Below, piece by piece: positions 1-31,211 of a stretch of DNA of 64,000 nt. The stretch comes from Flavobacterium panacagri (GTDB taxonomy: Bacteria > Bacteroidota > Bacteroidia > Flavobacteriales > Flavobacteriaceae). The translations under genes and the position numbers were made by a program. The notes beneath the pieces were generated by a model. It was not told the DNA's origin and searched no databases. It saw only the letters and a program-made list of their open reading frames with translations. The stretch is from the NCBI RefSeq assembly GCF_030378165.1, contig NZ_CP119766.1, positions 5,208,001 to 5,272,000 of the forward strand, read 5' to 3'. Every line of letters starts with the position of its first letter. The stretch's first letter is position 1.

Positions 1-2120
1 AAATTTCGGTTTTTATGGCTTAATTCTATTTCTTTTCCATAATTCAGATCTTTTGAAAGCGGAATTTCTCCATTGATTTCCATTTCAGGAAAGACCTCTT
101 CATTCTGAATTTTAAACTCAGAAATCACAGGCAATGGCGACCAATTATTTCTTTTCATTGCCGGTGGCGAAAAAGAAATAATTCCGTTTTTACCGCCCAG
201 AAAAATATTAGAATTATTGAAATAAAAGAAACCGCTCGAACTAAAAACATCTAGTCTGTTACCGCTGTTTACATGATAAATACTGATATCTTTTAGATTA
301 GATTTTACAAAAGCAATATTATTATTGTTGATGTTCAGCCAAAGATTTCCGTTGGCATCAGATAAAATATCGGTAATCCATTTTCCTGAAAGTTCTTTTA
401 GATTTTTTACAGGCTCAAATTCATTCTTTTTCGGATTAAACAGACACAATCCGAAACGCGTTGAAGCCCAGATTTTTCCCTTTACATCTACTAAAACATC
501 ACTAACATTTTCATCATGAGGCACTCCTTTTTCTTTGACAAAAAGTGATGAATACGTTTCTATTTTTCCTGAAGTAATATTGTACTTTACAACTCCGGTT
601 TCAGTCGCAAACCATACGTTATTTTTAGCATCTCTCTCGATAGCATTAATCTGAAAATCAGGTAAAAGTTTACTCGAAGTTTCTACTTGGAGTGTTTTAG
701 TATTTAGAATTACAGCTCCTTCTCCAAAAGACCCCACAATTATTTTATCCTCTGCAATTTTTCGAAAAGCAAAAACAGGCGATTTTTCAAATCCTGCCTT
801 TATTTCCCTCGAAGAATTATTCATGTAATTGTACACCAGAATGTTTCCGTCCCACAGTCCGCAATAAAAAATTCTTCCGTCATCAGAATAAATACTGGCG
901 ATATCTTTTCCGGTATTGTGTAAGGGAGTTGAGCCTTTAATATTCGAAATATAAAGTCCGTTATGATAGGTCGCCACAATTACTTTTTCATCGTAAGTCT
1001 TAGCAAAACCACGAATTCTAGGTGCCTGATTGCCAATAGAACGTGAAATATCTTTGTTTAAAGTAAACTGATTTTCATACGGATCGTATTTGTCCAAACC
1101 GTCTTCAGTTCCAATCCATAAGACACCGGATTTATCAAAATAAAGGGATGCAATTAAATTATCGACAAGCGAAGTATCATCAGACAAAATTGAATAATAC
1201 CATTTGTAATTGCCACTTTGAATGTCTTCCAGCTGATCGCAGACCAATAATCCGCCCAAAGTTCCAACCCAGTATTTTCCGTCGGGAGCTTGTGCAACGG
1301 ATAGAAAATAAGGGCCTAAAGCTCCTCTAACCTGTTTGTTATCAATATATAAATTAACAAATTGGTTTCTGGCTTTATCTAGTTTATACAATCCTTCACG
1401 AGTACCAATAAAAATATCCGACTTGGCATCTTCGTAAATAAAGTTGATGTATGGATTTTTGATGCTTGAATTTGGAACAGAAAGTGTATAGGTGTTAATC
1501 CTTACAATCGCGCCTTTTGTGTCCATTGTAATTTTGGCCACACCCGACTTTTCGTAGCTTCCCACCCAGACATTGCCTTTTTTATCTTCGAAAATTTCTT
1601 TAACGTAATCAAAACCTTTAAGCTTAATTTTATCAAATCGGTTTTCTTTCAGAGAAAATAAATAGGCTCCTTTGGTCTTGGTACCTACCCAGACTCTATT
1701 AAATTTATCTACATGAACTGATCTCACTTCATCATCTGGAAGGCTGTTTGGATCGCCTTTTTTATGAAAAAAAGTAGTAAAAACATGGGTATCCATCTGA
1801 AAAAGCGTCAATCCTTTTCGGGTTCCAATCCATAATTGATTGGCTTTTTCATCCAGTTCCAAAGCTGTGATATCGTCATTGTATAATTTATTTTTTCCAG
1901 GTGTAGAACTCATGTAGTTTTTGAATTGATAACCGTCAAAACGATTTAATCCAGAGAACGTTCCAAACCACATGAAACCTTTTTTGTCCTGTACAATATG
2001 ACGTACCGAATTATGAGATAACCCATTATTATCATTATAATGCGTAAATTTTATATTCTGTGAATAAGAATTATAAAAAAAGGCAATAAATAAAAATAAT
2101 ATAGGGTATTTTGGTTTCAT
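1..2120 (-). CDS. Hybrid two-component regulator (HTCS), N-terminal sensor part, truncated by window edge
   Basis: I read this frame directly; it is open from the ATG at 2118-2120 to base 1, so the 3' end lies outside the window. It starts with a signal peptide (MKPKYPILFLFIAFF, then SYSQN) followed by repeated propeller blades of the two-component regulator propeller type, with motifs such as GLSHNSVRHI, GFMWFGTFSGLNRFDGY, QLWIGTRKGL, NVWVGSYEKS and VLWIGTEDGLDKYD. The last residues read (SPP, then ELSHKNRNF) match the beginning of a Y_Y_Y domain. In complete family members a transmembrane segment, histidine kinase, receiver and AraC domain follow. Such proteins bind PUL breakdown products in the periplasm and switch on susCD operons. 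It is the last gene of the PUL and has its own promoter candidate overlapping the stop codon of the upstream gene. Whether its kinase residues are intact cannot be seen. Confidence 0.9.
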   Translation of the reverse strand, partial: MKPKYPILFLFIAFFYNSYSQNIKFTHYNDNNGLSHNSVRHIVQDKKGFMWFGTFSGLNRFDGYQFKNYMSSTPGKNKLYNDDITALELDEKANQLWIGTRKGLTLFQMDTHVFTTFFHKKGDPNSLPDDEVRSVHVDKFNRVWVGTKTKGAYLFSLKENRFDKIKLKGFDYVKEIFEDKKGNVWVGSYEKSGVAKITMDTKGAIVRINTYTLSVPNSSIKNPYINFIYEDAKSDIFIGTREGLYKLDKARNQFVNLYIDNKQVRGALGPYFLSVAQAPDGKYWVGTLGGLLVCDQLEDIQSGNYKWYYSILSDDTSLVDNLIASLYFDKSGVLWIGTEDGLDKYDPYENQFTLNKDISRSIGNQAPRIRGFAKTYDEKVIVATYHNGLYISNIKGSTPLHNTGKDIASIYSDDGRIFYCGLWDGNILVYNYMNNSSREIKAGFEKSPVFAFRKIAEDKIIVGSFGEGAVILNTKTLQVETSSKLLPDFQINAIERDAKNNVWFATETGVVKYNITSGKIETYSSLFVKEKGVPHDENVSDVLVDVKGKIWASTRFGLCLFNPKKNEFEPVKNLKELSGKWITDILSDANGNLWLNINNNNIAFVKSNLKDISIYHVNSGNRLDVFSSSGFFYFNNSNIFLGGKNGIISFSPPAMKRNNWSPLPVISEFKIQNEEVFPEMEINGEIPLSKDLNYGKEIELSHKNRN

Positions 2121-2167
2121 GGAAATAAATTATAAATGCAATTTAATCTTTTTGATTTAATAAATAT

Positions 2168-2175
2168 CAAAATTA
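2168..2175 (-). promoter_or_regulatory. Candidate Bacteroidota -7 element for the truncated HTCS
   Basis: The minus strand reads TAATTTTG, an exact match to TAnnTTTG, about 48 bases before the HTCS start codon. It overlaps the last codon of the metallophosphoesterase gene, so the regulator could be transcribed apart from the rest of the PUL. No clear -33 element was identified. Confidence 0.4.
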
Positions 2176-4002
2176 TTTAACAGATAAATTATCAATTTTG
2201 TTATTTTTCAAATCAATTTTAAAATGGTCGGAAGGCTCGCCATTCATGGTTTTGTAGAATATTTCTGCCCATAAAACCAGTTTTGGATCATCTGATTTTT
2301 TTAACTGCCTGCAGATCAATTCATATTCTTTTAATCTTTTCTTTCCAATTTTTGAAAAAGCTAGTTCATCGGCACTTTTTAAGCGGTAAAAATCGAAAAT
2401 CATATCAAAACCATTCCATGATTCAAAATCAGAAATAGTGAAAGAATTGGATTTCAAAACGGAATCAATATCTGTAGCATTAGAATTCATCAGCAATAAA
2501 TCTTTTCCTGAAAGATTCACAATCGATTTTAAAAAATCGGCTGGAAAATCTTCAGGTAGGAATCGTAACCGCACCAATTCTTTTAAATGCCAATTGGTAA
2601 ATTCTTCATAATCTTTGGCATTCAGAATTTCTTTCTGCCAAATGTCTTTACTATCAATTTCTTTTAAATGAGCATATTCTTCTTCGTAAAAAGGAAACAA
2701 ACTGTTGAATTTATTGACTTTGCTAATTACAATAGTTTCGACTTCCAAATCAAAATTAGAATGAATGGTCAATATTTTATAAGCTGGCATGTAAGCGGCA
2801 AGCGATGGCGTCTGAATATTAAACAACGTATTTCCTTTTGCAGATGTTCTTACGCCAGTATCGTTAATGTGCATGTGACCTCCAAAATGAATCTGAATTC
2901 CGGCATCTGCAAATTGCTGTGCGACTTCTTCATCGGGCACTCTTTGCAATTGCATTTTATTGGCGCCGAAAAGCTGTTTTAATTCAGGCGAAGCATCGTC
3001 ATTAAAATCAATCATTGGATAATGACTAAAAGCAATTAGTGTTTTTCCTTTTTGTTTCGCTTCCGCAGCAACTTTTTTTACCCACTTTAAAAGATGGTTT
3101 TTATAAATCAGAACGTTATTGTAACCCGTGTTCGCTCCCGAAAAATCATGCGGATCATTTGGTTTTCCTGACATTTTCTCATTCGGAACATACGCATTTG
3201 CATCTATTGCCAAAAGCCAAACTCCTTTAATTGGTTCCACCAAATAACTCGCATCGGGCAGATACAAATTAGTATTTTTTATTAGATACGTTCTTTTTTC
3301 TAAATCGGATTCTTTTTGAGCCTCTTCAAAATTGTAATTTTCATAGCTGTAGTTAGAAAATGGAGTTTCCCAATATAAATCGGTTTTCTTTGGAAAGAAA
3401 CCAAAATCACGCATTTCGTTTATAGTTTCTTTGTAACCCCAATTTTTTATATCAGCAGTAATTATCGGTTCTAGTTCGCTTTTATTTTTATTGAAGCTGT
3501 TCAAAGAACTGCTGATAATCTGTTCTTTTCCGTTTTTTCCTAAAAAATCAGTTTTAACAGCATCTTGAGAAAATGGTCGTACAACATCATGATTTCCTGT
3601 AGTCACATAAAAAGAAAGTCCGTGTTTTTGGGAATATTCATTGAGAATTTTTCGCAATCCGCGAACGTGAATAGGTTGTCCATCATCGCTGAAATCGCCT
3701 GGAAGAACGACTTGTTTGATACCTTTTTTAACAATATCATTTAAAGCTTCTAAAAAAGCGAAATAATTTTCATTGAAAATTCTCGTAGAATGCAACTGCG
3801 AATTCATAGTTCGGATATTGGCATATTCTCCCGTTACCGGATTTGGAATTCCTTTATAATCGCTGTCTTCAAATTGGGCAAAAATATCCTGTAAATGAGC
3901 ATCAGCTATAAAAGCAATCTGAACTTCTTTTTTCGTAGTCTGCTGTGATTTGCAGGAATATAAAGAAAGTAGTAGTACTAATATAGCCGATATTCTAAAC
4001 AT
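2173..4002 (-). CDS. Metallophosphoesterase lipoprotein (calcineurin-like)
   Basis: A 609-residue secreted phosphoesterase. The N-terminus is a lipoprotein signal (MFRISAILVLLLSLYSC), so the mature protein should be anchored through Cys17. The dimetal signature of the calcineurin-like family is complete and in order: DAH (IADAHLQD), GDFSDDG, GNHD, SHYP and GGHMH. It should hydrolyse phosphomono- or phosphodiesters in the periplasm or at the outer membrane; the substrate is not readable. Residues after about 410 form an alpha-rich C-terminal extension that I do not recognise. It sits at the end of the PUL behind the DUF4861 gene, which fits removal of phosphate groups from the glycan or its fragments. 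The gene's first codons were copied in a tandem duplication just upstream (see 4221-4262). Confidence 0.85.
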   Translation of the reverse strand: MFRISAILVLLLSLYSCKSQQTTKKEVQIAFIADAHLQDIFAQFEDSDYKGIPNPVTGEYANIRTMNSQLHSTRIFNENYFAFLEALNDIVKKGIKQVVLPGDFSDDGQPIHVRGLRKILNEYSQKHGLSFYVTTGNHDVVRPFSQDAVKTDFLGKNGKEQIISSSLNSFNKNKSELEPIITADIKNWGYKETINEMRDFGFFPKKTDLYWETPFSNYSYENYNFEEAQKESDLEKRTYLIKNTNLYLPDASYLVEPIKGVWLLAIDANAYVPNEKMSGKPNDPHDFSGANTGYNNVLIYKNHLLKWVKKVAAEAKQKGKTLIAFSHYPMIDFNDDASPELKQLFGANKMQLQRVPDEEVAQQFADAGIQIHFGGHMHINDTGVRTSAKGNTLFNIQTPSLAAYMPAYKILTIHSNFDLEVETIVISKVNKFNSLFPFYEEEYAHLKEIDSKDIWQKEILNAKDYEEFTNWHLKELVRLRFLPEDFPADFLKSIVNLSGKDLLLMNSNATDIDSVLKSNSFTISDFESWNGFDMIFDFYRLKSADELAFSKIGKKRLKEYELICRQLKKSDDPKLVLWAEIFYKTMNGEPSDHFKIDLKNNKIDNLSVK

Positions 4003-4262: not shown

Positions 4263-4510
4263 GTATTTTGTTTTTATTTTTATGATTATCCGTTATTTGT
4301 CCTGTTTTTAAAAATAGAAAACCTGTAAAATCAGACGCGGATTAAACAGATTCGCTAACGCGAAAACGCGGATAAAAACGGATTTTTATTAATCTTTTAA
4401 AAAATATAAATAGATTATCCGTTTTTATCCGCGTCTTTACGAAGTAAATCCGTTTAATCCGCGTCCTTGCTTAAAGGATAATTCAATTATTTTTTAATGT
4501 ATGCTTCCAA
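4221..4510. repeat. Tandem duplication unit B (290 bp) with a long hairpin
   Basis: Second copy of the duplicated segment, ending inside the functional DUF4861 gene. It contains an imperfect inverted repeat of about 48 bases per arm (4334-4382 and 4418-4465) rich in the words gcggattaaac and atccgcgt. The arm sequence also occurs at 54191-54240, so it is a dispersed palindromic element. Together units A and B fill the whole 484-base gap between the two genes. Confidence 0.85.
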
Positions 4511-5338
4511 TTTATCTAAAGTGTTTAGTTCTGTTTCTCTTGCACATGAAGATAAAATAGTTGTTTCTATGTTTTTTGCTGGTTTTGAGATTAATAAATA
4601 CTGCGTTCCGTCATCTGTATTTTTCTCAAAATCTTTTGGATTGTATTTAATTGCTCCTCCAACTTCAACAATTTCGGCAGCAACGTCTTCTGGATGTTTT
4701 CCCCAAACTGCGATATAATTTGCTCCTTTTTTCGTTGCCGAATCTTTAAAGTAGTTCACTCCTGTTGCAAATTGTACTTTTTCTCCAGTTAAAGAAACTG
4801 CTTCCACTTTTGCTTCTCTTTTACCTGAAAATACGGTCACGCGAACTAAAATGTCTACTTTCTTTCCTTTGTAAGGCACGCCTCTAGAAATCATTTCCAT
4901 CCAGGAAGTGGTATCTGTTTTTCCAACACGCGCCAAACGATTGGTAACTGGGTTTAAAGGCACTAATTTCTCTCCGTCCCAAAGTTTTACTCCTCCTAAA
5001 CCAACAGTTGAAGCTACTTTATAATAATCGGCTCCCCAACCTTCTTTTTGCTGTTCTGGTGTTGGATACCAATTTGCTTTTCTTAATTCTAAACCTGGTT
5101 TTGCTTTAGAATAAACGTCGATTGCTACTTTATCGCTAAAGTAAATTCGCAATGCCATCCACTCGTTTTCAACCGCTGGCCCGTGATGTCCAATCGTTTT
5201 ATATAAATCCCCTGAATCTGAGCCGATATCTGATAAATAAGTAATTTTGTCCGACTTCATATACAAACTGTTGTCTGTATTATTCTGTCCAAAACAAACG
5301 CAGCAAAAAAGTAAAGAGGTTACAATAGATAGTTTCAT
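4487..5338 (-). CDS. DUF4861 family secreted protein
   Basis: A 283-residue protein with a signal peptide (MKLSIVTSLLFCCVCFGQ). The motifs GHHGPAVENEWMALRIYF and, later, GGVKLWDGEKLVPL fit the DUF4861 family as I remember it. That family is found in PULs with polysaccharide lyases and glycosidases; its biochemical role is not settled. The fold is probably all-beta. The gene lies between the lyase-like gene and the metallophosphoesterase, on the same strand, so it is probably part of the same transcript. Its last seven codons are present a second time downstream because of the tandem duplication. Family assignment is by motif memory, not by search. Confidence 0.65.
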   Translation of the reverse strand: MKLSIVTSLLFCCVCFGQNNTDNSLYMKSDKITYLSDIGSDSGDLYKTIGHHGPAVENEWMALRIYFSDKVAIDVYSKAKPGLELRKANWYPTPEQQKEGWGADYYKVASTVGLGGVKLWDGEKLVPLNPVTNRLARVGKTDTTSWMEMISRGVPYKGKKVDILVRVTVFSGKREAKVEAVSLTGEKVQFATGVNYFKDSATKKGANYIAVWGKHPEDVAAEIVEVGGAIKYNPKDFEKNTDDGTQYLLISKPAKNIETTILSSCARETELNTLDKLEAYIKK

Positions 5339-7421: not shown

Positions 7422-7997
7422 CTAATCCACTACTTTTACCAAAGTCGGATTAATTCCTAACGGGTTCTTAATTACTTTACAGATTAAAGGAAACTCTGGA
7501 TTTTTTACAATCCACATTTCGGTTTCGTCTATTTGTGCTTTTACATGTAATGCATCAACTGCTTTTCCATCAATAGAAATTTCATTTTTATCATCACTTT
7601 TATTCAAAACATAAGTCGTGTTATTGTAAACAAATGAACCTTTTTTAACCAAATCCTGATAAGCTGACTGTGAAATCATAAAAAACGTTTCGGTTGGTTT
7701 TAAGTTCAGAACCGGTGCATATTCTCCCTGATTGAAACTTAATTCAGTTCCGTTTTTTACGGCTTCAGGAAGCATTACTATTTTACTTTTTACTCCTCTG
7801 GTTTCCAGTTTAAAAGCCAATGCATTGTTCGAAGTTTCAGCCGTAAGCTGTAAAGTTCTCGTTTGCCCGTGAAGCTTACAGACATAATGCAGTTGGGTAT
7901 TGTTTTTTAATGTTGGAATGTAATTCTGAGATATTCCTTTCTGATAAACAATGCAGAAAAGAATCATTAAAAATATATTTTTCATCTTGTTCATCAT
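7422..7997 (-). CDS. Small secreted PUL protein of unknown function
   Basis: A 191-residue protein with a signal peptide (MKNIFLMILFCIVYQKGIS) and a mature part of predicted beta character. I do not recognise a family. It starts one base after the stop codon of the first GH92 gene, so it is almost certainly co-transcribed and possibly translationally coupled with that mannosidase. Two start codons in a row of alternatives (MMNKMKN) leave the first residues uncertain. There is no lipobox, suggesting a soluble periplasmic protein. The close coupling suggests a helper or binding role for the mannosidase, but that is inference only. Confidence 0.7.
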   Translation of the reverse strand: MMNKMKNIFLMILFCIVYQKGISQNYIPTLKNNTQLHYVCKLHGQTRTLQLTAETSNNALAFKLETRGVKSKIVMLPEAVKNGTELSFNQGEYAPVLNLKPTETFFMISQSAYQDLVKKGSFVYNNTTYVLNKSDDKNEISIDGKAVDALHVKAQIDETEMWIVKNPEFPLICKVIKNPLGINPTLVKVVD

Positions 7998-7998
7998 T

Positions 7999-10272: not shown

Positions 10273-10382
10273 TGTGGTTACTTCTTTGTTTTTTGTTGGC
10301 ATGTATAATTATTTTTAATATTTCTCAAATAACTATAATTCTATTTTCCTTTACGTTAATAGGGCTTTAACCCAACGTTATA

Positions 10383-17600: not shown

Positions 17601-17631
17601 AGGCTAATAATAAAAGTTTAAGTTTTTCCAT
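14620..17631 (-). CDS. SusC/RagA-family TonB-dependent transporter (susC1)
   Basis: A 1003-residue outer-membrane transporter. After the signal peptide (MEKLKLLLLAFCFGFSMNTWAQ) come a carboxypeptidase-D-like beta-sandwich (EVSGVVLDDKGVPLPAANV, residues about 24-95), the SusC signature near LEQVVVVGYGKGSRKNLTTS, the plug (LQGKVSGLNISSSG, VIDGIPGV, IDVLKDAAATAIYGNRAANG) and a 22-stranded barrel closing with FGLNVIF. The SusC/SusD pair imports oligosaccharides using TonB energy. The aromatic last residue is the usual barrel-assembly signal. Upstream is a 279-base gap in which I found no exact -7 element. One of two different SusCD pairs in this PUL. Confidence 0.97.
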   Translation of the reverse strand: MEKLKLLLLAFCFGFSMNTWAQKTEVSGVVLDDKGVPLPAANVLEKGTTNTASTDFDGKFKISASNKNATLIFSFMGFDDQPVKLDGTKTTYSIRLQPTTTSLEQVVVVGYGKGSRKNLTTSVTSVKAEDLNRGAISDVGQLLQGKVSGLNISSSGDPTKTASVVLRGASTLNSSQGPFYVIDGIPGVDISVIAPDDIATIDVLKDAAATAIYGNRAANGVIMVTTKKGSKGRTQIAYNGYVGWEEVSNSLNMMNADQLRAFTVKNNLNFTPENDKGANTDWQKEILRPGRAASSSHNLSMSGGGDHGNYTASITSFNKEGVMQKSDFSRIIARLSVEQFAFDDKVKFGLNVTNSTTKYQNVPQRNTVLLQAASHLPVSPVRNEDGSFFENFISTGYFNPVALIEHGTDETKTDNLVGNLTAEVKLPFGITYNLNLAHQRLTASHGEFYDSYYSQYNSANFYNNPDPPLTKSLVNFGINGSALRNSYETRNNIIESFFSWDRTFGEHKIKAVAGYSWQENTLGDGFQATTTNFPVDNVGYNNLALSNYTSVNGYVVNFGDSKAYQKTRLISYFGRLNYNYKDKYLLQGSIRRDGGSMFGENNKWGYFPSVGGAWRLDKENFMKNQNFFSDLKLRGSWGVTGNSSGFNAYTAQFISGSLGTFYYNGQQIGAYGPNQAANPDLKWEKTATSNIGLDFSILKGKVTGSVDVYDKKTTDMIFNYNVNPVLVPVGSIVANGGTMSNKGIEVSLSTTPVKTADFSWTTNLNLAHNKNEIVKLTSPFFVGGDSIRRVQPDGGGQTGSTLQIFKEGKPLGQFFTLKYAGKNADGVSQYYDKNGDLTTTPQIGVDYHYAGSAQPKLLLGWANNFQYKKFDLSIFFRGVFGNKIFNATRADLFRPSTAMTTNILVDAGNESPNDLNSFKYSDRFIEDGSYLRLDNMTLGYNFGRVGRYISSVRIYQTINNVFVITKYTGIDPEVEQGGTAPGVDSNNFYPKTRTYMFGLNVIF

Positions 17632-22347: not shown

Positions 22348-22473
22348 TTGGAATAAATTGATGGATTTTGAATGAACAAAATGGCAGGTAGTAGATTGGT
22401 AGGGCAAAAAAGGTCTGTCAACTGAAATGATCAGCCGAAACAAATATTTAATAAATAAATTTGGGATAAAAAA

Positions 22474-22575
22474 AACAGGGCGTTTTCTTAAAGGTTCAAA
22501 AACTACCCTGCTTTTAACAACTAACACAAAAAGACTGCCTATTTCATAAATAGCGTACAATAAAATGGCAGTCTT
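22474..22575 (-). terminator. Two terminator-like hairpins after susCD2
   Basis: The first stem pairs AAGACTGCC (22531-22539) with GGCAGTCTT (22567-22575) and is followed on the minus strand by TTTTTG. The second pairs AACAGGG with CCCTGCTT (22474-22512) and is followed by a long T run. Both lie between the susD2 stop and the next gene, so the susCD2 transcript should mostly end here. Confidence 0.75.
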
Positions 22576-22605
22576 CAATTCAACGTATAAAAAAACAAAC
22601 TTAAA

Positions 22606-24348
22606 CTAGTATCCTTTATTCTGTACTAAATATCCAGGAGTGTTAGATGCACCGTCAATTGCTACCTGTGGAATTGGGAACAATCTTTTGTTTACATCTG
22701 TATCTGATTTTTCAGTCCATTTATCTTCAAAATGACTGAAACGGATTTGAGTATTTCTTCTTAAACCTTCCCAGTAAAATTCGAAACCATATTCTCTGTA
22801 CAAAATATCTAAGCTGATTGCAGGAAGCGCAGCAGGAATTGGAGCACGAGCCGTTCTTGAAGTTCTAACTGTATTCATATCTGCCAACGCACCAGCGTTA
22901 TCTCCTTTTCTTAATTTAGCTTCAGCACGCATCATAAAAATTTCAGCATATCTCAATAGTACCATATCTACACTGCTGTAGTAGTTTCCGTCTGGAGAAG
23001 TGTGGCTAAACTGGTATTTAGAAACTCTGTATCCAGAATAGTGCATACTTCCTTCATTTGTAAAATCAACTTTCAAAGTAAGGTTAACATATCCAACGTT
23101 TTTGTCTGGTCCATTACCTTTGATTTGTTTTACAGGATAAATTCTATATCCAGTATCACATTTGTAAAAAGCTCCGTTAGCATCTTTTCTAGCTGCCCAA
23201 GGAATGCCTCTCATAATTCCTCTGTCGATTTCAAATTCTTCTGCTTTTACACAATAATAATGGTTCTCATCATTTAAAGGAGAAAATCCAGTAAGATCTT
23301 TTAAATTATCTGGCACCTTTGCATTGTTTTTGTAAAATCTTGCATCAGCATCAGCAGGATCTACAGAACCATAAGCATCAACCCAAGTTTGGTAAAAATC
23401 TGATGTAATTGCTGGACCATCTGTTCCATCTGCATTAATCGATTCAGGTCTTGGAAACATTGATCCAGGAATTGACCAATAAGCCCAACGGTTGTTTTCG
23501 TCTTTTAAAACACCACGCTGATCCATTGCAAAAATCACCTCTTTATTTGAGTTGTTATCATCATCAAATAAATCAAAATACTCAGGAGATAAACTGAATT
23601 TACCAGAGTTGATAATATTATCTGTGTATTTAATAACCTTATCCATATCTGCCGGTGCAAATGAAGGCGTTCCATAAGGATCACGATACACTGCAGCATT
23701 CAAATTAAGCCTTGCAAGAAGTCCCCAAACTGCCGCTTGTGTCATTCTTCCTGGCCCTTTATCTGTATTGATCACATCAGCAACAGATAATAATTCGTTT
23801 TCGATGTACGTAACTGCATCTTGTCCTCTCAAAATTTCTGAAGTAGAAGCCGATGATTCTTTTTTGAATACCAATCCCCAGCTGTCTAATGTCATCATAT
23901 TTAAGTAAGCTCTTAACGCTTTCATCTCGTAAAGTGCTCCTTGTGCTTCTTTATTACCATCTTCTGCAAGAGGCGTTAATACTTCGATTGCAGAAAGTGT
24001 TCTAGAAATATTCTTTGTAAGTTCGTTCCATGTACTTGTTACAAGATCATTTGTAGGCGTTGTTGTGTGTGCGTGAACTGCTAAATATTTACCGCCATCA
24101 TACCAATCTGTTCCTCCTCTGTAAGGTAAAATACCTTCGTCACTCGCAATTAACTGAAGACCAAAATTGTTTGTATGGATCCAAGTCGCTTTTAATTGTC
24201 CGTAAGCTGGAGCAATTGCTCCACTGATTGCTTCTGCTTGTCCTGCTCCATTTAAAGATTCGTCCAGGACTTTTTCTTCTAAATTTGTACAGCTCCAGGT
24301 AAATAATACACCTAATGCAAGAGCTGCTATTACTATTTTATTTTTCAT
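22606..24348 (-). CDS. SusD/RagB-family glycan-binding lipoprotein (susD2)
   Basis: A 580-residue SusD homologue with lipobox (LGVLFTWSCTN). Family segments are visible: LIASDEGILPYRGGTDWYDG, MKALRAYLNMMTLDSWG, AAVWGLLARLNLNAAVYRD, YAEIFMMRAEAKLRKGDNAG, YREYGFEFYWEGLRRNTQIR and KRLFPIPQVAI. It follows susC2 by 17 bases. It is longer than and clearly different from susD1, so the two pairs probably take up different fragments of the glycan or different glycans. Ligand unknown. Confidence 0.97.
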   Translation of the reverse strand: MKNKIVIAALALGVLFTWSCTNLEEKVLDESLNGAGQAEAISGAIAPAYGQLKATWIHTNNFGLQLIASDEGILPYRGGTDWYDGGKYLAVHAHTTTPTNDLVTSTWNELTKNISRTLSAIEVLTPLAEDGNKEAQGALYEMKALRAYLNMMTLDSWGLVFKKESSASTSEILRGQDAVTYIENELLSVADVINTDKGPGRMTQAAVWGLLARLNLNAAVYRDPYGTPSFAPADMDKVIKYTDNIINSGKFSLSPEYFDLFDDDNNSNKEVIFAMDQRGVLKDENNRWAYWSIPGSMFPRPESINADGTDGPAITSDFYQTWVDAYGSVDPADADARFYKNNAKVPDNLKDLTGFSPLNDENHYYCVKAEEFEIDRGIMRGIPWAARKDANGAFYKCDTGYRIYPVKQIKGNGPDKNVGYVNLTLKVDFTNEGSMHYSGYRVSKYQFSHTSPDGNYYSSVDMVLLRYAEIFMMRAEAKLRKGDNAGALADMNTVRTSRTARAPIPAALPAISLDILYREYGFEFYWEGLRRNTQIRFSHFEDKWTEKSDTDVNKRLFPIPQVAIDGASNTPGYLVQNKGY

Positions 24349-24365
24349 GTTCTCTTTTTTTTTGA

Positions 24366-27335
24366 TTAAAATGCAACGTTTAAGCCAAATACAATTGTTC
24401 TGCTTCGTGGATAACTGAAGTAATCAATTCCAAAAGACTGAATGTCTCCAACTGATGTTCCTGTATTAATTTCAGGATCGTAACCGCTGTATTTTGTAAT
24501 TACAAATAAGTTTTGTCCAGTTATAGAAAGACGAATATTGTCCATTACATCACCAAGACCAACTAATCTAGGACTTAAATTATATCCTAAAGTCGCATTG
24601 TTTAATCTTAAGAAACTACCATCTTCTAAGTATCTAGTAGAAACTGTGTTTGAATTTGTAGAAGCTTCGTTTAAATATTGTGAAGCTCTATCTGTTGTGT
24701 TGAAAGAGTTTGCTAAACTTCCTCTGTTGAATGAAGTCATGGCAACGTGGTTGTAAATTTTATTACCTCCTGCTCCGTTAAAATTAAATCCTAAATCAAG
24801 ATTTTTATATTTAAAGTTCAAGTAGAAAGCATAGATATAATCTGGTAATGCACTTCCAGCAACGATACGGTCATTGTCAAGAATAGAACCATCTCCATTT
24901 GTATCTGCAAACTGATTCAAACCATTAGAACCAATCCCAGTAAAATTAAGCATGTAGAAAGAACCAATTGAATGTCCGTTTAAAACTCCGTTGATTGTTG
25001 CACCAGATTGTCCTCCACCTTGCGCACCTCCTGTTGTTAAAATTTGGTATGGAGAATTCTCTACTTTATTATTGGTAAATGAAATATTTCCACCAACACT
25101 GTATGAGAAATCTTTGCTTTTATCACTGCTGTAATCTAAAGCTACCTCGATACCATTATTTTTAATCTGCATCGCTGGAATGTTTGTCCAATATTTAGAT
25201 GTAGGCTGAATAGGATCTGTTGGAGCAACTTCTAACAAAATGTTTTCAGAAACTTTATTAAAATAATCTACTGTACCAGAAAGTCTATTATTAAATAAAC
25301 TAAAATCTAAACCAACGTTTGTTTGTGTAGAAACTTCCCACTGAATATTTGGATTAGCCAAACGTGTGTAGATTGAACCATAAGGATAACCGCTCAAATC
25401 TGTAGCAGATGGATCTAATGGATACGTATCGTTTCCTGTGTTACTTTCTGTATAACTTGCTTTTGTAATTTTAGAAGGAATTTCTTGAGATCCTGTCTGA
25501 CCCCAGCTCGCTCTTAATTTAAGGTTGTTTAAAGTTTCAGATTCTTTTAAGAAATCTTCTTTAGTAATATTCCAACCTAATGCTACAGATGGAAAATATC
25601 CATATCTGTTGTTTTTACCAAACTTAGAAGAACCGTCAGCACGCATTGTTGCTGTCAATAAATATTTGTTGTCGTATCCGTAGTTTAATCTACCAAAGAA
25701 AGACTGAAGCTCGTTTTCTACAGCAGAAGAAGATTGTGTTGTACGCTCACTTGCTGTTTCGATTTGATTTTTCGGCTCTACCCCATTATTAGGAAATCCT
25801 GATAAGTTGTAGCTTTTTTGGTAAACTTGTATTTTTTGGTAAGACTGACCCGCTAAAACAGTAAAACTATGGGCTTTTTTGTTAAAATTATAGGTCAATG
25901 TATTCTCATATAAAACGTTATTATTATTTGTAATAACATTGTTCAATGAACCTAAAGTTGTGTTTGTTGCAGACGCATAAGGTAAAACCTGAATATCTCT
26001 TTCAGACATAGAATAATCTACTCCAAGGTTAAACTTGTACGTTAATCCTTTTATGAATTCATAAGATGGAGAGATATTAGCCAAAATACGGTTGTTGTTT
26101 GTAACATCTGAGTAATTTCTCTCGCTGATTAAAGGATTTAAGATATCGTTGCTCAAATTAACATTTGGCTCTCCGTTTACATAAACCGCATCAGTAGGGT
26201 TCATTGTCAACATGTTTCCTACAATACTTCTAGCATCTGGTCTTTCATTTTCAAGCTTAGTTCCAGTCAAATTAAATGTGATATTAAATTTATCATCTAA
26301 AGCTTTCTGACTTAAATTTAAACGTCCAGAATAACGTTTCAAATCACTATTTCTTAAAACACCTTCTTGATTATCTACACCAACAGAAGCTGCATAAGTT
26401 GATTTTTCTGTTCCACCGCTCATCGATAAATTAACGTTTTGAGAAACTCCCGTTCTAGTTAATTCATCCTGCCAATCTGTATTTGCCCCTCCGTCTTGAA
26501 GGTTTCCGTTTACAGTTGCAACTTGTCTTCTAAACTCGTCTGCACTAAAAACATCCACTTTATTAGCCAATGAAGAAAAACCAGTAGTCACAGAAAGATT
26601 AATCTTTGATTGTCCTTTTGCTCCTTTTTTAGTTGTAATTACAACTACTCCATTTGCTGCCCTAGATCCATAGATAGCAGAAGCAGAAGCATCTTTAAGG
26701 ACTTCAATACTTTCAATATCCTGAGGATTGATAAAGTTTAACGGGTTCGAAGCTACTCCTGTATTGCTGTTATCCAAAGCAAATCCATCTACTACATAAA
26801 GAGGTGTTGTTCCAGAACGTAAACTTCCAACTCCACGAATAATAATATCTTGATTTGCACCAGGCTCACCACTTGCCGCCATAACATTAACTCCGGCAAC
26901 TTTACCTTGAATTAACTGACCTGCATTGGCAACAACTCCTTTGTTAAAATTCTCACTTTTTACAGAACCAATAGCTCCAGTTACGTCAGATCTTTTTTGA
27001 GAACCGTAACCAACCACTACTACTTCATTTAAAGTACTAACCTCTTCTGCTAAAGAAACAGTTAGTTTTTGAGTTCCTGAGAAAGAAACTTCTTTTGTTT
27101 TAAATCCAACATAAGAAAAAACCAAAACACCATCATTTTGTTGTGCCTTAATTTTAAAATTTCCATCAAAATCTGTAGTAACTGCCCCTTTTGGTTCTCC
27201 TTTAATATAAACAGAGACACCAGGAACTGGTACTTTTTCAACATCAGAAATTACAATTCCTGATACATTTATCTGCCCATAGGAGTATGACATACATCCA
27301 AAGGCAAGAATTAGCAATGCATAAATTTTTTTCAT
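24366..27335 (-). CDS. SusC/RagA-family TonB-dependent transporter (susC2)
   Basis: A 989-residue outer-membrane transporter: signal peptide (MKKIYALLILAFGCMSYSYG), carboxypeptidase-D-like domain (INVSGIVISDVEKVPVPGVS), the conserved LNEVVVVGYGSQKRSDVTG, plug (LIQGKVAGVNVMAASGEPG, YVVDGFALDN, IEVLKDASASAIYGSRAANG) and a barrel ending FGLNVAF. It starts the susCD2 operon directly behind the regulator gene on the same strand, the usual place for the operon a regulator controls. An exact -7 element stands 24 bases before the start codon. Confidence 0.97.
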   Translation of the reverse strand: MKKIYALLILAFGCMSYSYGQINVSGIVISDVEKVPVPGVSVYIKGEPKGAVTTDFDGNFKIKAQQNDGVLVFSYVGFKTKEVSFSGTQKLTVSLAEEVSTLNEVVVVGYGSQKRSDVTGAIGSVKSENFNKGVVANAGQLIQGKVAGVNVMAASGEPGANQDIIIRGVGSLRSGTTPLYVVDGFALDNSNTGVASNPLNFINPQDIESIEVLKDASASAIYGSRAANGVVVITTKKGAKGQSKINLSVTTGFSSLANKVDVFSADEFRRQVATVNGNLQDGGANTDWQDELTRTGVSQNVNLSMSGGTEKSTYAASVGVDNQEGVLRNSDLKRYSGRLNLSQKALDDKFNITFNLTGTKLENERPDARSIVGNMLTMNPTDAVYVNGEPNVNLSNDILNPLISERNYSDVTNNNRILANISPSYEFIKGLTYKFNLGVDYSMSERDIQVLPYASATNTTLGSLNNVITNNNNVLYENTLTYNFNKKAHSFTVLAGQSYQKIQVYQKSYNLSGFPNNGVEPKNQIETASERTTQSSSAVENELQSFFGRLNYGYDNKYLLTATMRADGSSKFGKNNRYGYFPSVALGWNITKEDFLKESETLNNLKLRASWGQTGSQEIPSKITKASYTESNTGNDTYPLDPSATDLSGYPYGSIYTRLANPNIQWEVSTQTNVGLDFSLFNNRLSGTVDYFNKVSENILLEVAPTDPIQPTSKYWTNIPAMQIKNNGIEVALDYSSDKSKDFSYSVGGNISFTNNKVENSPYQILTTGGAQGGGQSGATINGVLNGHSIGSFYMLNFTGIGSNGLNQFADTNGDGSILDNDRIVAGSALPDYIYAFYLNFKYKNLDLGFNFNGAGGNKIYNHVAMTSFNRGSLANSFNTTDRASQYLNEASTNSNTVSTRYLEDGSFLRLNNATLGYNLSPRLVGLGDVMDNIRLSITGQNLFVITKYSGYDPEINTGTSVGDIQSFGIDYFSYPRSRTIVFGLNVAF

Positions 27336-27512: not shown

Positions 27513-30500
27513 CTAAAGCGAATATTCTTTATATTCCTTCGGACTTTTGCCAAAATACTTCTTAAAAGAGCGTCCAAAGTATTTTGGATCATTATAACCA
27601 CATTCAAAACTGATTTCAGAGATGTTCAATTTTTTAGTTTTTAATAATAATTCGGCTTTCTGCAAGCGAAGAGACATTAAAATATCTGATGGAGACTGGT
27701 TCAAAATTTCTTTAAACAAACGGTAACATTTAACTCTAGAAATACCTAATTGTTCCCCCATCATTTCAACATTAAAGGCTGGATTCTGTAATTCTTCTTT
27801 AATGATTTCTAAAGCCTTTTTCAGAAGCTTTTCGTTAGGTGTGATATTCTCATTATTTTCTGTCAGGATTTCAAATATCTTCTGCTGGATTTTATACTCT
27901 TTTACAGGTTCGCTATTTTGATTGATCAGCCTATTAATCTTTTTGCTAATAAATGATAAACTTGCCGGCAGTTTAATATGAGTATCAATACCCAATTCTA
28001 ACAATTGTTCATCCTGTTCGTAGTTAATATTCTCAGAGATATAAATAAGCGGCATTTTTTCAACGCTTACCTCTTTATTTTGTTTTAGAAAATTAGTAAG
28101 CTCTCTAGAGAATTCTGCCTGATAAAAAACTAATGCGGCAATTTCAGCCTGTTTAATAATAGCATTTAAATTTGAAACGGAACTCTCAAAAATCACATTA
28201 TACTTGTCGCTTTCCAAAATCTGATTGGCTGCAGGAGTATTGTACGGATCACCAAAAACCAAAAGACATTTTTTATCTGGAGAAAACTGATCTTGATGAT
28301 TGAAGTTTTTCCAGGAGATTGTTTCTTTTAAATTAACTTTAGAATCGACAACTTCGATAGGAATACGTAATCTGGCTTGAAACAGTTCTTCAGACGAAGA
28401 AATAATTTCTCCATTCATATCTTGAAGCAAAACTTCTAAAGCTTTAAAATATGGGCTATAATGCGATATATTGTACCAGTTATTTTTTAGAATAACACTA
28501 TCTGAAATCGTTTTTATTTCTATAAAATCATTTTGATAAGCAATGGTAATTTTTAAAGTACTATCCTTATCTGAATACTTGCTTAAATCATTAAAAAAAT
28601 ACTGCATCGAAAGTTTTAAGCGTAAAACGTCCACAGCGGCAAAACAATCGGTATTATCTATTTCGCAATTAAAGTTTACTTCATTAAGCTGCGAATCTTT
28701 TTTTAGTTTTTCGACATTATTTTTTAGAACAGGGAATAAATTCACTGCCGTTTTTTTAACAGGCCCTAAATCTTTCACATGTTCCAGATAATTCCATTCC
28801 GAAATAAGATTAACCAATTTCCCTGATTCGAATAATAAAGCGCGTTGTGTTTCGGTATCTTTTTTTAAGGAGCTGGAAGTTTTAATTATTTTTGAAATTG
28901 GTTCCTGAAATTCAGCCAGCATAAATGTTTTGAACTTTTCAATTTCGAAATTTTCATTTTTTAAATTGCTGTGAAGAATTAGAAGTTTTTCTTTTTGCTC
29001 TTCAATTTTTTTATTTTTTTGATCGAGCTCTGCATTAATTTCTTCCAGATTTTTTTTCTGATTCTCGATAACAGCTGTTCTTGCTTTTACCAACTCTTCC
29101 ATGTATTGTTGCTGTGCCACCGCAGTTTTATTTTTGATATAAATCACCACCAGACAACCCAGCAATATAAGGGTCGATAATAAAATATAAAATAAAATCG
29201 ATTCATAAAAAGCTTCAGTAATATGAAGTGTAAAAAAAGCAGGTTCGGGAATACCGTCTATTCCTTCCTTTATCACAAAACTGTAATCTCCAGAAGACAA
29301 ACCAGCATACTCAATTTTATTATCGGCAGGCAATAAAATCCAATTTTCATCTTTTCCCTCCAGTTTGTAATAAATATTAGCTCTTTTATTATGAGGAAAT
29401 AAAATGGGAATAACTTCTATTTTTAATTCGTTGTCACTAAAACCTTTTTCAATCGCGGACAAATAATTTTCATTTCCATCTATTTTCAATTTAATTTTTG
29501 CTTTTGCATTATTACCTTGAATGGTATTGGGATTAAAATAATTGAGTCCGCCTACACCGCCAAAGAATAAATTCCCTTTTGAATCTTGATAATATGCGCC
29601 TTCTGAAAACTCTGTAGCCTGCCAGCCATAATTAGGATTATATGAAGTAACCGAATAATTTTTCTTGTCAATAGAAGCAATTCCTTTTGTGGTGCTCAAC
29701 CATACTTTATCTCCATTATCGATCAGTCCGTAAACCATATGACTTGGCAGACCTTCAGCTTCTGTAATGTTTTTGACAACACCTTTTCTTTTATTAAAAA
29801 TAGTTACGCCACCCAAAGAAGCAATCCAGTAATTATCTGATTCATTATCCACAAAAACAGAATAAATACTGTTTCCTAAAATTCCTTCTTTGGTCGTTAT
29901 TTTTTGTAATGTGCCATTTGTTAAATTAAAAATAACTACACCGCTATTTTCGGTTGCCAATATCAAATTCTGATTGCTTTTTTTGACACACCTAATATGA
30001 TATTTACTGAGCAGTTCTTGTCCTTTAAACTTTTCAAACTTTCCTGTTGCCAAATTGAACTTAGCCAAACCTCCCCAGCATCCCATCCAAAGCTGTTTGT
30101 TTTGATCTTCAAAAATAGAATAACATCTGCCAATAGACATTCCTGCAATACTATTCTTCTCAAAACTTGTGATATTATGATCCGAAATACGCAGAATTCC
30201 CTCATAAGTACCTGCCCAAACCGATCCATCGCTGGAAGTAAATAATGTTCGTATTCTTTCCCAATCTGGACTTGACGCTGCTTTATTACTATTAAACTTC
30301 TGAAAAGAATTGCTTGATTCATTGTAATAATAAAGTCCTCTTGTATAATAACCTAACCAAATTTTTCCTTTGCTGTCTTTGGTAACTGCTCTGATGGTTT
30401 CATTTGGAAGATTGGGTTCTTTAACTGGATGTGGCATCACCGAATTTATCTTTTCAGAACCACTGTATGCCATACTCAATCCTCCATCTTTCTGTCCTAA

Positions 30501-31211
30501 CCAGATATTTCCAAAATTATCCTCATGAATGGTTTCTATTTCATTATTTTTAAAGGAATAAGGCGAATATAAATCGGATGTGAAGTGCTGTATATTATTT
30601 TCGTCTAATTCATTAGTAATAATATACAATCCGTTTTCACGCGTCGCAAACCAGATATTTCCAGCTTTGTCTTTTAGGATATCATTTATAATAAGGTTTG
30701 GATACTTTTTAAGCAGAATACTTTTCAGGTTTGGATAATCTGAATTTTTAATAGTATTACGGGCAATTTCTACAAAAGATTTATTCTTGAGTTCGTAATA
30801 TTTTTTCCCTGTTTCTACAACAATATTTCCTTTTTGAGATAAATAAATATCTGTTGGAAGACTTTTGAATTTAAATTCCTGAAACTCATTGTTGCCAATA
30901 TATCGGTTAACATGTCCTTCTTTAGTAATCAGCCAAATTTGTCCTTCTGAATCTTTTTCTAATTTAGTAATATAGTTACTTGATATTGTTTTAGGATCAG
31001 TGCTATTGTTTTTGAAAATTTTGAAATTATAACCATCAAAATAATTTAAACCGTCCCAAGTTGCAATCCACAATCCTCCATCTTTACTGCTTTCTATATC
31101 TACTACAGAATTATTAGACAACCCTTGATTGGTGGTAAAATTCTCAAATTTTATCTGCTGTCCAAATGAATATATTGTGAAAAAGTAAAGAAATAGTAAT
31201 ATCCTAGTCAT
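27513..31211 (-). CDS. HTCS-like regulator with degenerate phosphorelay (AraC output)
   Basis: About 1232 residues from MTRILLFLYFF, a signal peptide; a start 7 codons upstream would overlap a near -7 element (TATCCTTG at 31230-31237), so I prefer the later ATG. Order: two-component regulator propeller (IKFENFTTNQGLSNNSV, GLWIATWDGLNYFDGYNF and further blades, residues about 20-600), Y_Y_Y domain, membrane helix (about 670-695), coiled coil, a kinase-like region, a receiver-like region (about 980-1095) and an intact AraC HTH (ISRVKCYRLFKEILNQSP, ISEISFECGYNDPKYFGRSF). Where HisKA should read SHELRTPL it reads FMLAEFQEPISKI, without His. The ATP lid motifs DxGxG are not visible, and the receiver has VFYQAEF where the phosphoryl Asp is expected. 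It is therefore probably not a working phosphorelay, yet its sensor and DNA-binding ends look sound. Confidence 0.9.
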   Translation of the reverse strand: MTRILLFLYFFTIYSFGQQIKFENFTTNQGLSNNSVVDIESSKDGGLWIATWDGLNYFDGYNFKIFKNNSTDPKTISSNYITKLEKDSEGQIWLITKEGHVNRYIGNNEFQEFKFKSLPTDIYLSQKGNIVVETGKKYYELKNKSFVEIARNTIKNSDYPNLKSILLKKYPNLIINDILKDKAGNIWFATRENGLYIITNELDENNIQHFTSDLYSPYSFKNNEIETIHEDNFGNIWLGQKDGGLSMAYSGSEKINSVMPHPVKEPNLPNETIRAVTKDSKGKIWLGYYTRGLYYYNESSNSFQKFNSNKAASSPDWERIRTLFTSSDGSVWAGTYEGILRISDHNITSFEKNSIAGMSIGRCYSIFEDQNKQLWMGCWGGLAKFNLATGKFEKFKGQELLSKYHIRCVKKSNQNLILATENSGVVIFNLTNGTLQKITTKEGILGNSIYSVFVDNESDNYWIASLGGVTIFNKRKGVVKNITEAEGLPSHMVYGLIDNGDKVWLSTTKGIASIDKKNYSVTSYNPNYGWQATEFSEGAYYQDSKGNLFFGGVGGLNYFNPNTIQGNNAKAKIKLKIDGNENYLSAIEKGFSDNELKIEVIPILFPHNKRANIYYKLEGKDENWILLPADNKIEYAGLSSGDYSFVIKEGIDGIPEPAFFTLHITEAFYESILFYILLSTLILLGCLVVIYIKNKTAVAQQQYMEELVKARTAVIENQKKNLEEINAELDQKNKKIEEQKEKLLILHSNLKNENFEIEKFKTFMLAEFQEPISKIIKTSSSLKKDTETQRALLFESGKLVNLISEWNYLEHVKDLGPVKKTAVNLFPVLKNNVEKLKKDSQLNEVNFNCEIDNTDCFAAVDVLRLKLSMQYFFNDLSKYSDKDSTLKITIAYQNDFIEIKTISDSVILKNNWYNISHYSPYFKALEVLLQDMNGEIISSSEELFQARLRIPIEVVDSKVNLKETISWKNFNHQDQFSPDKKCLLVFGDPYNTPAANQILESDKYNVIFESSVSNLNAIIKQAEIAALVFYQAEFSRELTNFLKQNKEVSVEKMPLIYISENINYEQDEQLLELGIDTHIKLPASLSFISKKINRLINQNSEPVKEYKIQQKIFEILTENNENITPNEKLLKKALEIIKEELQNPAFNVEMMGEQLGISRVKCYRLFKEILNQSPSDILMSLRLQKAELLLKTKKLNISEISFECGYNDPKYFGRSFKKYFGKSPKEYKEYSL

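What the first reader, a model, noticed from the sequence alone, without database searches (positions are those of the whole stretch)
2120..31211. A PUL that couples alpha-mannosidases and alpha-GlcNAc-ase with three phosphoester hydrolase domains
Two GH92 enzymes, one GH89, a GDPD-alkaline phosphatase fusion and a metallophosphoesterase lipoprotein share one strand with two SusCD pairs and two HTCS-type regulators. GH92 enzymes acting on mannose in phosphodiester linkage are known, and alpha-GlcNAc-phosphate caps occur in eukaryotic glycans. I infer a phosphorylated mannose/GlcNAc glycan (phosphomannan, phospho-N-glycan or GPI-like) as substrate. The lyase-like and DUF4861 genes do not fit this simply and may serve another part of the glycan.
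Basis: partly seen in the sequence, partly recalled or inferred. Interest (0 to 1): 0.75.

Follow-up and report, generated by a model that had tools for sequence, protein, structure and literature searches.

The report
Candidate plant sphingolipid-sugar utilization locus
A Flavobacterium carries a gene cluster that looks built to strip and eat the sugar-inositol-phosphate head group of plant membrane sphingolipids (GIPCs), abundant lipids for which I found no described bacterial utilization system in the papers I could search.

Summary
The substrate guess is only partly right. Just left of the window the PUL continues with myo-inositol oxygenase (MIOX), GH2, a homologue of human glucosaminide N-acetyltransferase (HGSNAT), a symporter and GH28. 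The unclassified lyase-like gene is tied to inositol use: 73 of 78 genomes carrying it have MIOX (42 within 10 kb) and 3 of the other 5 have IolD; in 121 Flavobacterium genomes, 11 of 11 carriers have MIOX against 9 of 110 others. Related loci add GH115, GH88, PI-PLC, arabinofuranosidase, NagB and UxaC. Together these families match the plant sphingolipid (GIPC) head, GlcN(Ac)/Man-GlcA-inositol-phosphate with Gal and Ara, better than phosphomannan or N-glycans; GPI is the main rival. The GDPD-AP/SusCD2/regulator part is a separate four-gene PUL, beside the first here and on other contigs in some relatives. No activity is shown, and the lyase fold could not be predicted (server busy).

The parts
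3..2120 (-). HTCS0, hybrid two-component regulator of PUL 1 (N-terminal part; the gene continues to G000:C1:5206086, left of the window)
   Evidence: Reg_prop, Y_Y_Y, HisKA, HATPase_c, Response_reg, HTH_18. Left of it, outside the window: MIOX (G000:C1:5204723-5205610), GH2, HGSNAT homologue, SSS symporter, GH28
2173..4002 (-). Metallophosphoesterase lipoprotein (MPE), proposed inositol-phosphate phosphatase or phosphodiesterase
   Evidence: PF00149; motifs ADAH, GDFSDDG, GNHD, GGHMH; present with HTCS0 and MIOX also in 9 of 9 lyase-less Flavobacterium loci
4487..5338 (-). DUF4861 protein, function unknown
   Evidence: PF16153 132.7 bits; no solved relative; in 3 of 9 lyase-less Flavobacterium MIOX loci; a longer DUF4861 protein between lyase and GH88 in L056
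5423..7273 (-). Lyase-like protein without a Pfam family; proposed uronate-acting enzyme on the GlcA of the head group
   Evidence: no significant family and no solved relative; N202-H203-R204-W205, R246 and Y250 invariant in 53 of 53 aligned sequences; tied to MIOX or iol
7422..7997 (-). X191, small protein of unknown function with a signal-like start, conserved in Flavobacterium loci
7999..10302 (-). GH92a alpha-mannosidase
   Evidence: Glu576 aligned with a Glu of 6f8z
10383..12695 (-). GH92b alpha-mannosidase; homologues of 65-69% identity in four MIOX loci of other genera, 53-55% in two more
12988..14601 (-). SusD1
14620..17631 (-). SusC1
17911..20085 (-). GH89 alpha-N-acetylglucosaminidase
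   Evidence: aligned to solved NAGLU 4xwh over 629 residues, E 4.4e-121
20554..22578 (-). GDPD/PI-PLC-like domain fused to alkaline phosphatase; part of PUL 2
   Evidence: occurs as a module with SusCD2 and HTCS1
22606..24348 (-). SusD2 (PUL 2)
24366..27335 (-). SusC2 (PUL 2)
27513..31232 (-). HTCS1-type regulator of PUL 2 without detectable kinase or receiver domains

Best explanation
The locus is a polysaccharide-utilization-type system for glycosyl-inositol-phosphate head groups, most likely those of plant glycosyl inositol phosphorylceramides (GIPCs), [Ara/Gal/Man]-GlcN(Ac)- or Man-GlcA-(alpha1,2)-inositol-1-phosphate. Proposed order: a phosphodiesterase (the GDPD-like/AP fusion here; PI-PLC-C1 in some relatives) frees the head group or its phosphate; SusCD import it; GH2 and GH92a/b remove outer Gal and Man; the HGSNAT homologue acetylates terminal alpha-GlcN across the inner membrane so that GH89 can remove alpha-GlcNAc, the same pair of steps as in lysosomal heparan breakdown; the GlcA is removed by a lyase-like and/or GH28 route here, by GH115 in some relatives; MPE and AP take off phosphate; inositol enters by the SSS symporter and MIOX turns it into glucuronate for the UxaC pathway. 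Shown: gene content, co-localisation, homologies, catalytic motifs. Inferred: all substrate specificities, the order and place of steps, and the lyase activity.
For: MIOX (PF05153, 370.5 bits) lies 475 bp from HTCS0 on the same strand. Lyase and MIOX: 11 of 11 versus 9 of 110 in 121 Flavobacterium genomes, Fisher p 1.3e-10, within 11 kb in the 9 of 11 where both are on one contig; 4 of 4 versus 15 of 243 in a 247-genome class sample; 73 of 78 lyase genomes have MIOX and 3 of the other 5 have IolD over its cut-off; in L087 an iol set (IolB family, PfkB kinase, IolD, aldolase) follows the lyase directly. MIOX loci without the lyase keep GH92a/b, MPE, HTCS0, HGSNAT, GH28 (9 of 9 in Flavobacterium) or carry GH115, PI-PLC, arabinofuranosidase, UxuA, UxaC, NagB. 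Control: a separate MIOX clade (100/100 support) has any of eight glycan/phosphate families in 1 of 13 loci versus 18 of 20 in the clade of the window. HGSNAT homologue matches solved human HGSNAT, E 8e-16; GH89 matches solved NAGLU. [quoted passage not shown] Own genome has UxaC and no PI-PLC-C1, leaving the GDPD-like domain as candidate for that step.
Against: No activity, expression or growth data. No GH115, and no gene recognised as GH88, in the part of the window's own PUL that I searched, so its GlcA step rests on the lyase-like or GH28 protein, neither shown to act on GlcA; GH28 and DUF4861 are usual in pectin loci (recalled). 9 of 20 Flavobacterium MIOX loci lack the lyase. 36 of 78 lyase loci have no MIOX within 10 kb, and many Spirosoma-type loci show only SusCD and lyase among the tested families. 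Two of the 31 distant MIOX genes are of the other clade by score (L042 and L046, 317-320 bits); in the family sample the lyase is in 3 of 149 genomes, all 3 with MIOX, but one of these (G075) has only such an other-clade MIOX on another contig. Of the 78, L041 (shortened lyase frame) and L089 (MAG) have neither MIOX nor IolD over cut-off. Relatives share ancestry, so the Fisher values overstate independence, and the families of the control comparison were chosen after seeing some of the loci. One relative (L145) has a frame that reads to me like a sulfatase, not searched. I did not search for ceramide or sphingoid-base genes.
Confidence: 0.62

Rival explanations
1. The substrate is the GPI-anchor glycan or free GPI-type lipids (ethanolamine-P-Man3-GlcN-inositol-P): GH92s remove Man, HGSNAT plus GH89 remove GlcN, phosphodiesterases remove ethanolamine and lipid, MIOX takes inositol.
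For: Man, alpha-GlcN, inositol and two kinds of phosphodiester are all in GPI (structure in PMC11907402, passages); HGSNAT homologue and GH89 present; PI-PLC-C1 in relatives; GH125 next to GH92b in L142.
Against: GPI cores have no uronic acid, yet related loci carry GH115 (442.5 bits), GH88, GH28 and the lyase-like protein; GH2 and arabinofuranosidases fit Gal/Ara-rich plant GIPC.
Confidence: 0.15
2. The substrate is a fungal or bacterial inositol sphingolipid (Man-Ins-P-Cer, GlcN-Ins-P-Cer, bacterial ceramide phosphoinositol).
For: Inositol, Man and GlcN are present in fungal GIPCs (PMC6151786, passages); some gut Bacteroidetes make inositol lipids (PMC9246714, passages).
Against: The core structures seen in those passages lack GlcA; the uronate and arabinose enzymes would be unexplained.
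Confidence: 0.07
3. One reading: phosphomannan or phosphorylated N-glycan.
For: Two GH92s with phosphoesterases on one strand.
Against: MIOX and iol linkage has no role; GH92s closest to ordinary mannosidases, CcMan5 among the most distant of 14.
Confidence: 0.04
4. Mosaic: unrelated neighbouring PULs (a pectin-type set with GH28, lyase-like and DUF4861; a separate inositol cassette; a separate phosphate-scavenging GDPD-AP PUL) with no common substrate.
For: GDPD-AP/SusCD2/HTCS1 occurs apart from the MIOX PUL; the lyase and DUF4861 come and go; many lyase loci have none of the other tested families within 10 kb.
Against: The combination of MIOX with GH92, GH89, HGSNAT, GH28 or GH115 recurs in different orders in several families of Bacteroidota; 8 of 8 close GDPD-AP forms (68% identity or more) are in MIOX genomes even when not on one contig, though these species are related.
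Confidence: 0.1
5. Heparan-sulfate-like glycosaminoglycan degradation, where the HGSNAT/NAGLU pair is classical.
For: HGSNAT and NAGLU homologues in one PUL.
Against: No gene recognised as heparin lyase or sulfatase among the PUL's proteins searched; MIOX and GH92 unexplained.
Confidence: 0.02

Closest known systems
Bacteroidota polysaccharide utilization loci (SusCD + HTCS + GHs), e.g. yeast-mannan PULs of Bacteroides with GH92 (recalled)
   Same: SusCD pairs, HTCS, GH92 exo-mannosidases on one strand
   Different: continues into inositol oxidation (MIOX), GlcN acetylation and phosphoester hydrolysis; predicted substrate is a lipid head group rather than a polysaccharide
Lysosomal heparan degradation step pair HGSNAT + NAGLU (pathway recalled)
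   Same: homologues of both human proteins: acetyl transfer to terminal alpha-GlcN, then GH89 removal; plant GIPC has the GlcNAc(a1-4)GlcA unit that heparan also has (recalled)
   Different: bacterial, in a PUL; no sulfatase recognised among the proteins searched; predicted GlcN-GlcA-inositol substrate
MIOX + SSS cassettes of other Flavobacteriaceae (MIOX clade T2)
   Same: SSS symporter and MIOX (13 of 13)
   Different: none of eight tested glycan/phosphate families in 12 of 13 such loci; separate clade
Alginate/heparin-type toroid polysaccharide lyases (PL5, PL8, PL12, PL15, PL17, PL21; recalled)
   Same: an invariant N-H-x-W motif followed about 48 residues later by an invariant Tyr resembles their catalytic Asn/His...Tyr arrangement (recalled)
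   Different: no significant sequence match to any Pfam family or solved structure; fold not tested

Membership tests
Polysaccharide utilization locus | adjacent susC/susD pair with CAZyme genes and a sensor-regulator | tested here: met
Polysaccharide utilization locus | co-induction by one glycan | not testable with these tools
   needs RNA-seq
Hybrid two-component system (HTCS) | propeller sensor + His kinase + receiver + AraC in one chain, first regulator | tested here: met
   HTCS0
Hybrid two-component system (HTCS) | same, for the second regulator 27513-31232 | tested here: not met
   no HisKA, HATPase or receiver hit; propeller and AraC present
GH92 enzyme specific for mannose phosphodiester (CcMan5-like) | closest relationship to CcMan5 among solved GH92s | tested here: not met
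   CcMan5 rows rank 12-13 and 13-14 of 14
Myo-inositol oxygenase | full-length PF05153 with metal-ligand motifs | tested here: met
   (370.5 bits, positions 2-249 of 249); IHDLGK, WGHDEY, RYHSFY, NPYDLY (role of motifs recalled)
HGSNAT/NagX-type acetyltransferase | homology to HGSNAT with the WNGxTxxD segment | tested here: met
   Pfam gave no family
Polysaccharide lyase family | sequence or fold similarity to a known PL family | tested here: inconclusive
   no significant Pfam or PDB match; weak Lyase_8_N hits in 6 of 53 rows, best E 0.069, and DUF771 in 18 rows, best E 0.0022; fold prediction unavailable (server busy)
GIPC utilization | enzyme activity on GlcN(Ac)/Man-GlcA-Ins | not testable with these tools
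   biochemistry needed
GIPC utilization | an enzyme family for each unit of the head-group core (Man, GlcN(Ac), GlcA, phosphate, inositol) in one locus | tested here: met
   G061 (L137+L097): GH92a/b, HGSNAT, GH89, GH115, PI-PLC, MPE, MIOX, plus an arabinofuranosidase, NagB, UxaC (most named by similarity to Pfam-checked relatives); no GH2 seen there

The most novel reading that the evidence does not exclude
The lyase-like protein founds a new polysaccharide-lyase family that cuts the GlcN(Ac)- or Man-GlcA bond of plant GIPC head groups by beta-elimination, standing where related species have a GH115 alpha-glucuronidase; with it, Bacteroidota of several families carry dedicated loci that turn plant membrane sphingolipid heads completely into central metabolites.
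Probability: 0.35. Interest if true: 0.82.

Novelty: new variant of a known kind. Interest (0 to 1): 0.72.

Why it matters
GIPCs are described as the predominant lipid of the outer leaflet of the plant plasma membrane (PMC7980081, abstract start in the listing) and as major sphingolipids on Earth (PMC11907402, passages), and they are the targets of NLP toxins (PMC6743777, passages). I found no paper that describes a bacterial locus for eating their head groups, judging from titles and abstract starts of the listings (0, 1, 0, 5, 3, 10 of 16, and 1 papers listed; only open-licence PMC papers, no preprints, were held) and passages of PMC9246714. A candidate locus with a family for each core unit makes the question testable, suggests a supply of GIPC-trimming enzymes for glycolipid analysis, and extends the PUL idea from polysaccharides to the polar heads of membrane lipids.

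Tried and rejected
Rejected: phosphomannan/phospho-N-glycan as substrate (MIOX linkage unexplained; CcMan5 distant); heparan sulfate (no heparin lyase or sulfatase recognised among the PUL's proteins searched); one single PUL for the whole range (GDPD-AP/SusCD2/HTCS1 is separable).

Led nowhere: search of the lyase-like profile against solved structures (nothing significant) and Pfam at E up to 1 (only weak, inconsistent matches); DUF4861 against solved structures (none); papers on GH92 with phosphomannose (none held). Structure prediction of the lyase-like protein never started: the server answered 'busy', so no fold search was made.

Own error corrected: I placed G006 (L112) with the glycan-type MIOX loci after seeing its neighbours; by score (313 bits) and by the tree it belongs to the other clade. 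The counts used are those, with L112 in the control clade; it is the one control locus that has such genes, and its MIOX frame holds 2 in-frame TGA. L146 (MIOX locus of G542, a lyase genome whose MIOX stands on another contig and has none of the eight families) was left out of the 20; with it the count would be 18 of 21. MIOX neighbourhoods were fetched for all 13 members of the other clade, but not for the 10 MIOX rows under 325 bits (G312, G349, G357, G389, G421, G451, G452, G455, G481, G509). The 78 loci are those whose DNA matched one of two peptide patterns, so the search is not exhaustive. Only the top 25 of 167 families were shown.
Full report
WHAT IS THERE. The window is part of a 5.98-Mb chromosome (G000:C1:5208001-5272000), taken to be Flavobacterium from its nearest relatives (e.g. 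L012, Flavobacterium quisquiliarum, lyase-like protein 99% identical). The listed genes are open frames on the - strand: metallophosphoesterase (2173-4002), DUF4861 (4487-5338), a 616-aa lyase-like protein without a Pfam family (5423-7273), a 191-aa protein with a signal-like start (7422-7997), GH92a (7999-10302), GH92b (10383-12695), SusD1/SusC1 (12988-17631), GH89 (17911-20085), a GDPD-like domain fused to alkaline phosphatase (20554-22578), SusD2/SusC2 (22606-27335) and an HTCS-type regulator (27513-31232). Gaps between neighbours are 1-484 bp. Motifs of the phosphatase, phosphodiesterase, GH89 and GH92 proteins are intact as far as pattern searches show (motif roles recalled).

WHAT THE WINDOW CUTS OFF. 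The regulator at 3-2120 continues left of the window and is complete in HTCS domains. Beyond it, on the same strand, lie a myo-inositol oxygenase (G000:C1:5204723-5205610, PF05153 370.5 bits), a GH2 enzyme, a protein homologous to human heparan-alpha-glucosaminide N-acetyltransferase (E 8e-16 to the solved human enzyme), an SSS symporter and GH28-type enzymes. Inositol oxygenase turns inositol into glucuronate (established knowledge); the genome also has glucuronate isomerase UxaC elsewhere.

LINK TO INOSITOL. I used the lyase-like protein as a tag. A pattern-based scan of the genome collection gave 78 loci from Flavobacterium, Maribacter, Salegentibacter, Pontibacter, Spirosoma, Niabella, Ferruginibacter, Runella and others. 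42 of 78 have MIOX within 10 kb (43 by a looser tblastn count). Of the genomes of the 36 others, 31 have a MIOX somewhere (two of these, L042 and L046, are of the other MIOX clade by score), and of the last 5, 3 have IolD over its cut-off; the other 2 are L041, whose lyase frame is short, and L089, a MAG. In L087 the IolD gene is part of a set (IolB family, PfkB kinase, aldolase) directly behind the lyase. In 121 Flavobacterium genomes the lyase is in 11 and MIOX in 20, and all 11 lyase genomes have MIOX (9 of 110 among the rest; Fisher p 1.3e-10). In the 9 genomes where both are on one contig they are 7-11 kb apart; in the other 2 (G179, G221, fragmented assemblies) they are on different contigs. 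In a class-wide sample of 247 genomes the figures are 4 of 4 against 15 of 243. In a family sample of 149 the lyase is in 3, all with MIOX, but in one (G075) this is the other-clade MIOX on another contig. Species share ancestry, so the p-values are too small, but the pairing spans several families.

LOCI WITHOUT THE LYASE. Nine Flavobacterium species have the same PUL with MIOX but no lyase; GH92a/b, X191, MPE, HTCS0, MIOX, GH2, HGSNAT, SSS and GH28 are seen in 9 of 9 and DUF4861 in 3 of 9. In four other genomes of the family the MIOX locus holds GH92b (65-69% identical), MPE and HTCS0 homologues with a GH115 alpha-glucuronidase-family protein, and in three of these four PI-PLC (the GH115 of L095 is a divergent one, 64.5 bits). 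The clearest is G061 (L137 + L097): GH89 - MFS transporter - NagB-type deaminase - SusC - SusD-like (by position, not searched) - GH92b - GH92a - X191 - PI-PLC - GH115 - MPE - HTCS0 - arabinofuranosidase (Alpha-L-AF_C) - MIOX - SSS - HGSNAT-like, with UxaC two genes on (GH115 442.5 bits). There, PI-PLC and GH115 stand where lyase-like and DUF4861 stand in the window. L100, L143, L144 and L147 combine MIOX with GH89, HGSNAT and GH28. GH88 (unsaturated glucuronyl hydrolase family) stands close to the lyase in L040 and L056, 2 of 78. Only 2 of 78 lyase loci (L041, L047) also show GH115.

CONTROL. MIOX proteins fall into two clades separated with 100/100 support. The clade that does not include the window's type sits with an SSS symporter (13 of 13); 1 of its 13 loci (L112) has any of GH92, GH115, HGSNAT, GH89, PI-PLC, MPE, a second metallophosphoesterase type, or GH28 within the 20-kb stretch, against 18 of 20 lyase-less loci of the window's clade (9 of 11 outside Flavobacterium, p 3.7e-4). 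The families were chosen after seeing some of these loci, and L146 was left out (18 of 21 with it).

WHAT SUBSTRATE FITS. [quoted passage not shown] PMC12201980 (passages) adds fucose; PMC9113257 (passages) says the GlcA-IPC step is specific to plants. Families for each unit occur in these loci: arabinofuranosidase/GH43 (Ara), GH2 (Gal), GH92 (Man), HGSNAT then GH89 (GlcN), GH115/GH28/lyase/GH88 (GlcA), PI-PLC or GDPD-like, AP and MPE (phosphate), MIOX or iol (inositol), NagB and UxaC/UxuA (sugar catabolism). GPI and fungal inositol lipids would leave the GlcA, Gal and Ara enzymes without a role. This is an inference from gene content; no activity was shown.

THE SECOND MODULE. GDPD-AP, SusD2, SusC2 and the HTCS1 regulator form a four-gene set that lies on a contig other than that of MIOX in the draft genomes G163, G197, G238 and G249 (in G249 close to a contig end) and beside the MIOX PUL in G000, G190 and G230. 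Its eight closest forms (68% identity or more) all lie in MIOX genomes (8 of 8 against 12 of 113), while three forms at 53-60% (G257, G165, G219) do not. In all, 31 of 121 genomes have a homologue at E 1e-60 or better, about 20 of them only at 40-42% identity, and the window genome itself has a second copy at 41%. In G238 the module is followed by another GH92a and X191 copy, and in G257 (L128) it lies beside an MPE homologue (51%) and a 288-aa GH92-like frame. The window genome has no PI-PLC-C1, so the GDPD-like barrel is my candidate for the phosphodiester step.

THE LYASE-LIKE PROTEIN. 53 aligned sequences (52 relatives, 41-80% identical to it) share invariant N202-H203-R204-W205, R246 and Y250, which resembles the Asn/His...Tyr arrangement of toroid polysaccharide lyases (recalled). 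No significant match to Pfam or the PDB was found and the fold could not be predicted. Its role as a lyase is therefore a hypothesis.

VERDICT. Observation confirmed; interpretation partly supported. Best reading: two PULs, probably cooperating, for glycosyl-inositol-phosphate head groups, most likely plant GIPC. Confidence that inositol is a product: about 0.9. Confidence in plant GIPC in particular: about 0.6.

Noticed in passing
L087:11781-16515: Chitinophagaceae lyase locus with an iol set (IolB family, PfkB kinase, IolD over cut-off, aldolase) directly behind the lyase; its genome has no MIOX: an alternative inositol catabolic route with the same lyase.
   Followed up: yes
L043:11845-13578: Two endonuclease/exonuclease/phosphatase-family proteins directly behind the lyase, a fold shared with sphingomyelinase-type phospholipases C (recalled); the genome has IolD and no MIOX.
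   Followed up: partly
window:27513-31232: HTCS-like regulator with propeller, Y_Y_Y and AraC domains but no detectable kinase or receiver domain.
   Followed up: partly
L101-L113 (MIOX-centred loci): A second MIOX clade in Flavobacteriaceae paired with an SSS symporter (13 of 13) and, in 12 of 13, with none of eight tested glycan/phosphate families: perhaps a free-inositol uptake cassette.
   Followed up: partly
L091:9808-11736: NagB-like deaminase fused to a PIG-L-type domain between SusC1 and GH89 in Flavobacterium limi; a close homologue (87%) also lies between GH89 and SusC in G061 (L137).
   Followed up: partly
L142:15677-17116: GH125 exo-mannosidase next to GH92b in a MIOX/GH115/PI-PLC locus.
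   Followed up: no
G000:C1 near 2.88 Mb and 4.67 Mb (L001-L004): Four further full-length GH92 genes in the same genome, not in this cluster.
   Followed up: no
window:7422-7997: Small protein X191 of unknown function between GH92a and the lyase, in 25 of 78 lyase loci (all Flavobacterium), 9 of 9 lyase-less Flavobacterium loci, G061, and beside the GDPD-AP module in L125.
   Followed up: no
L145:13347-15074: A frame that reads like a sulfatase some kilobases from MIOX and GH92b in G502; not searched.
   Followed up: no
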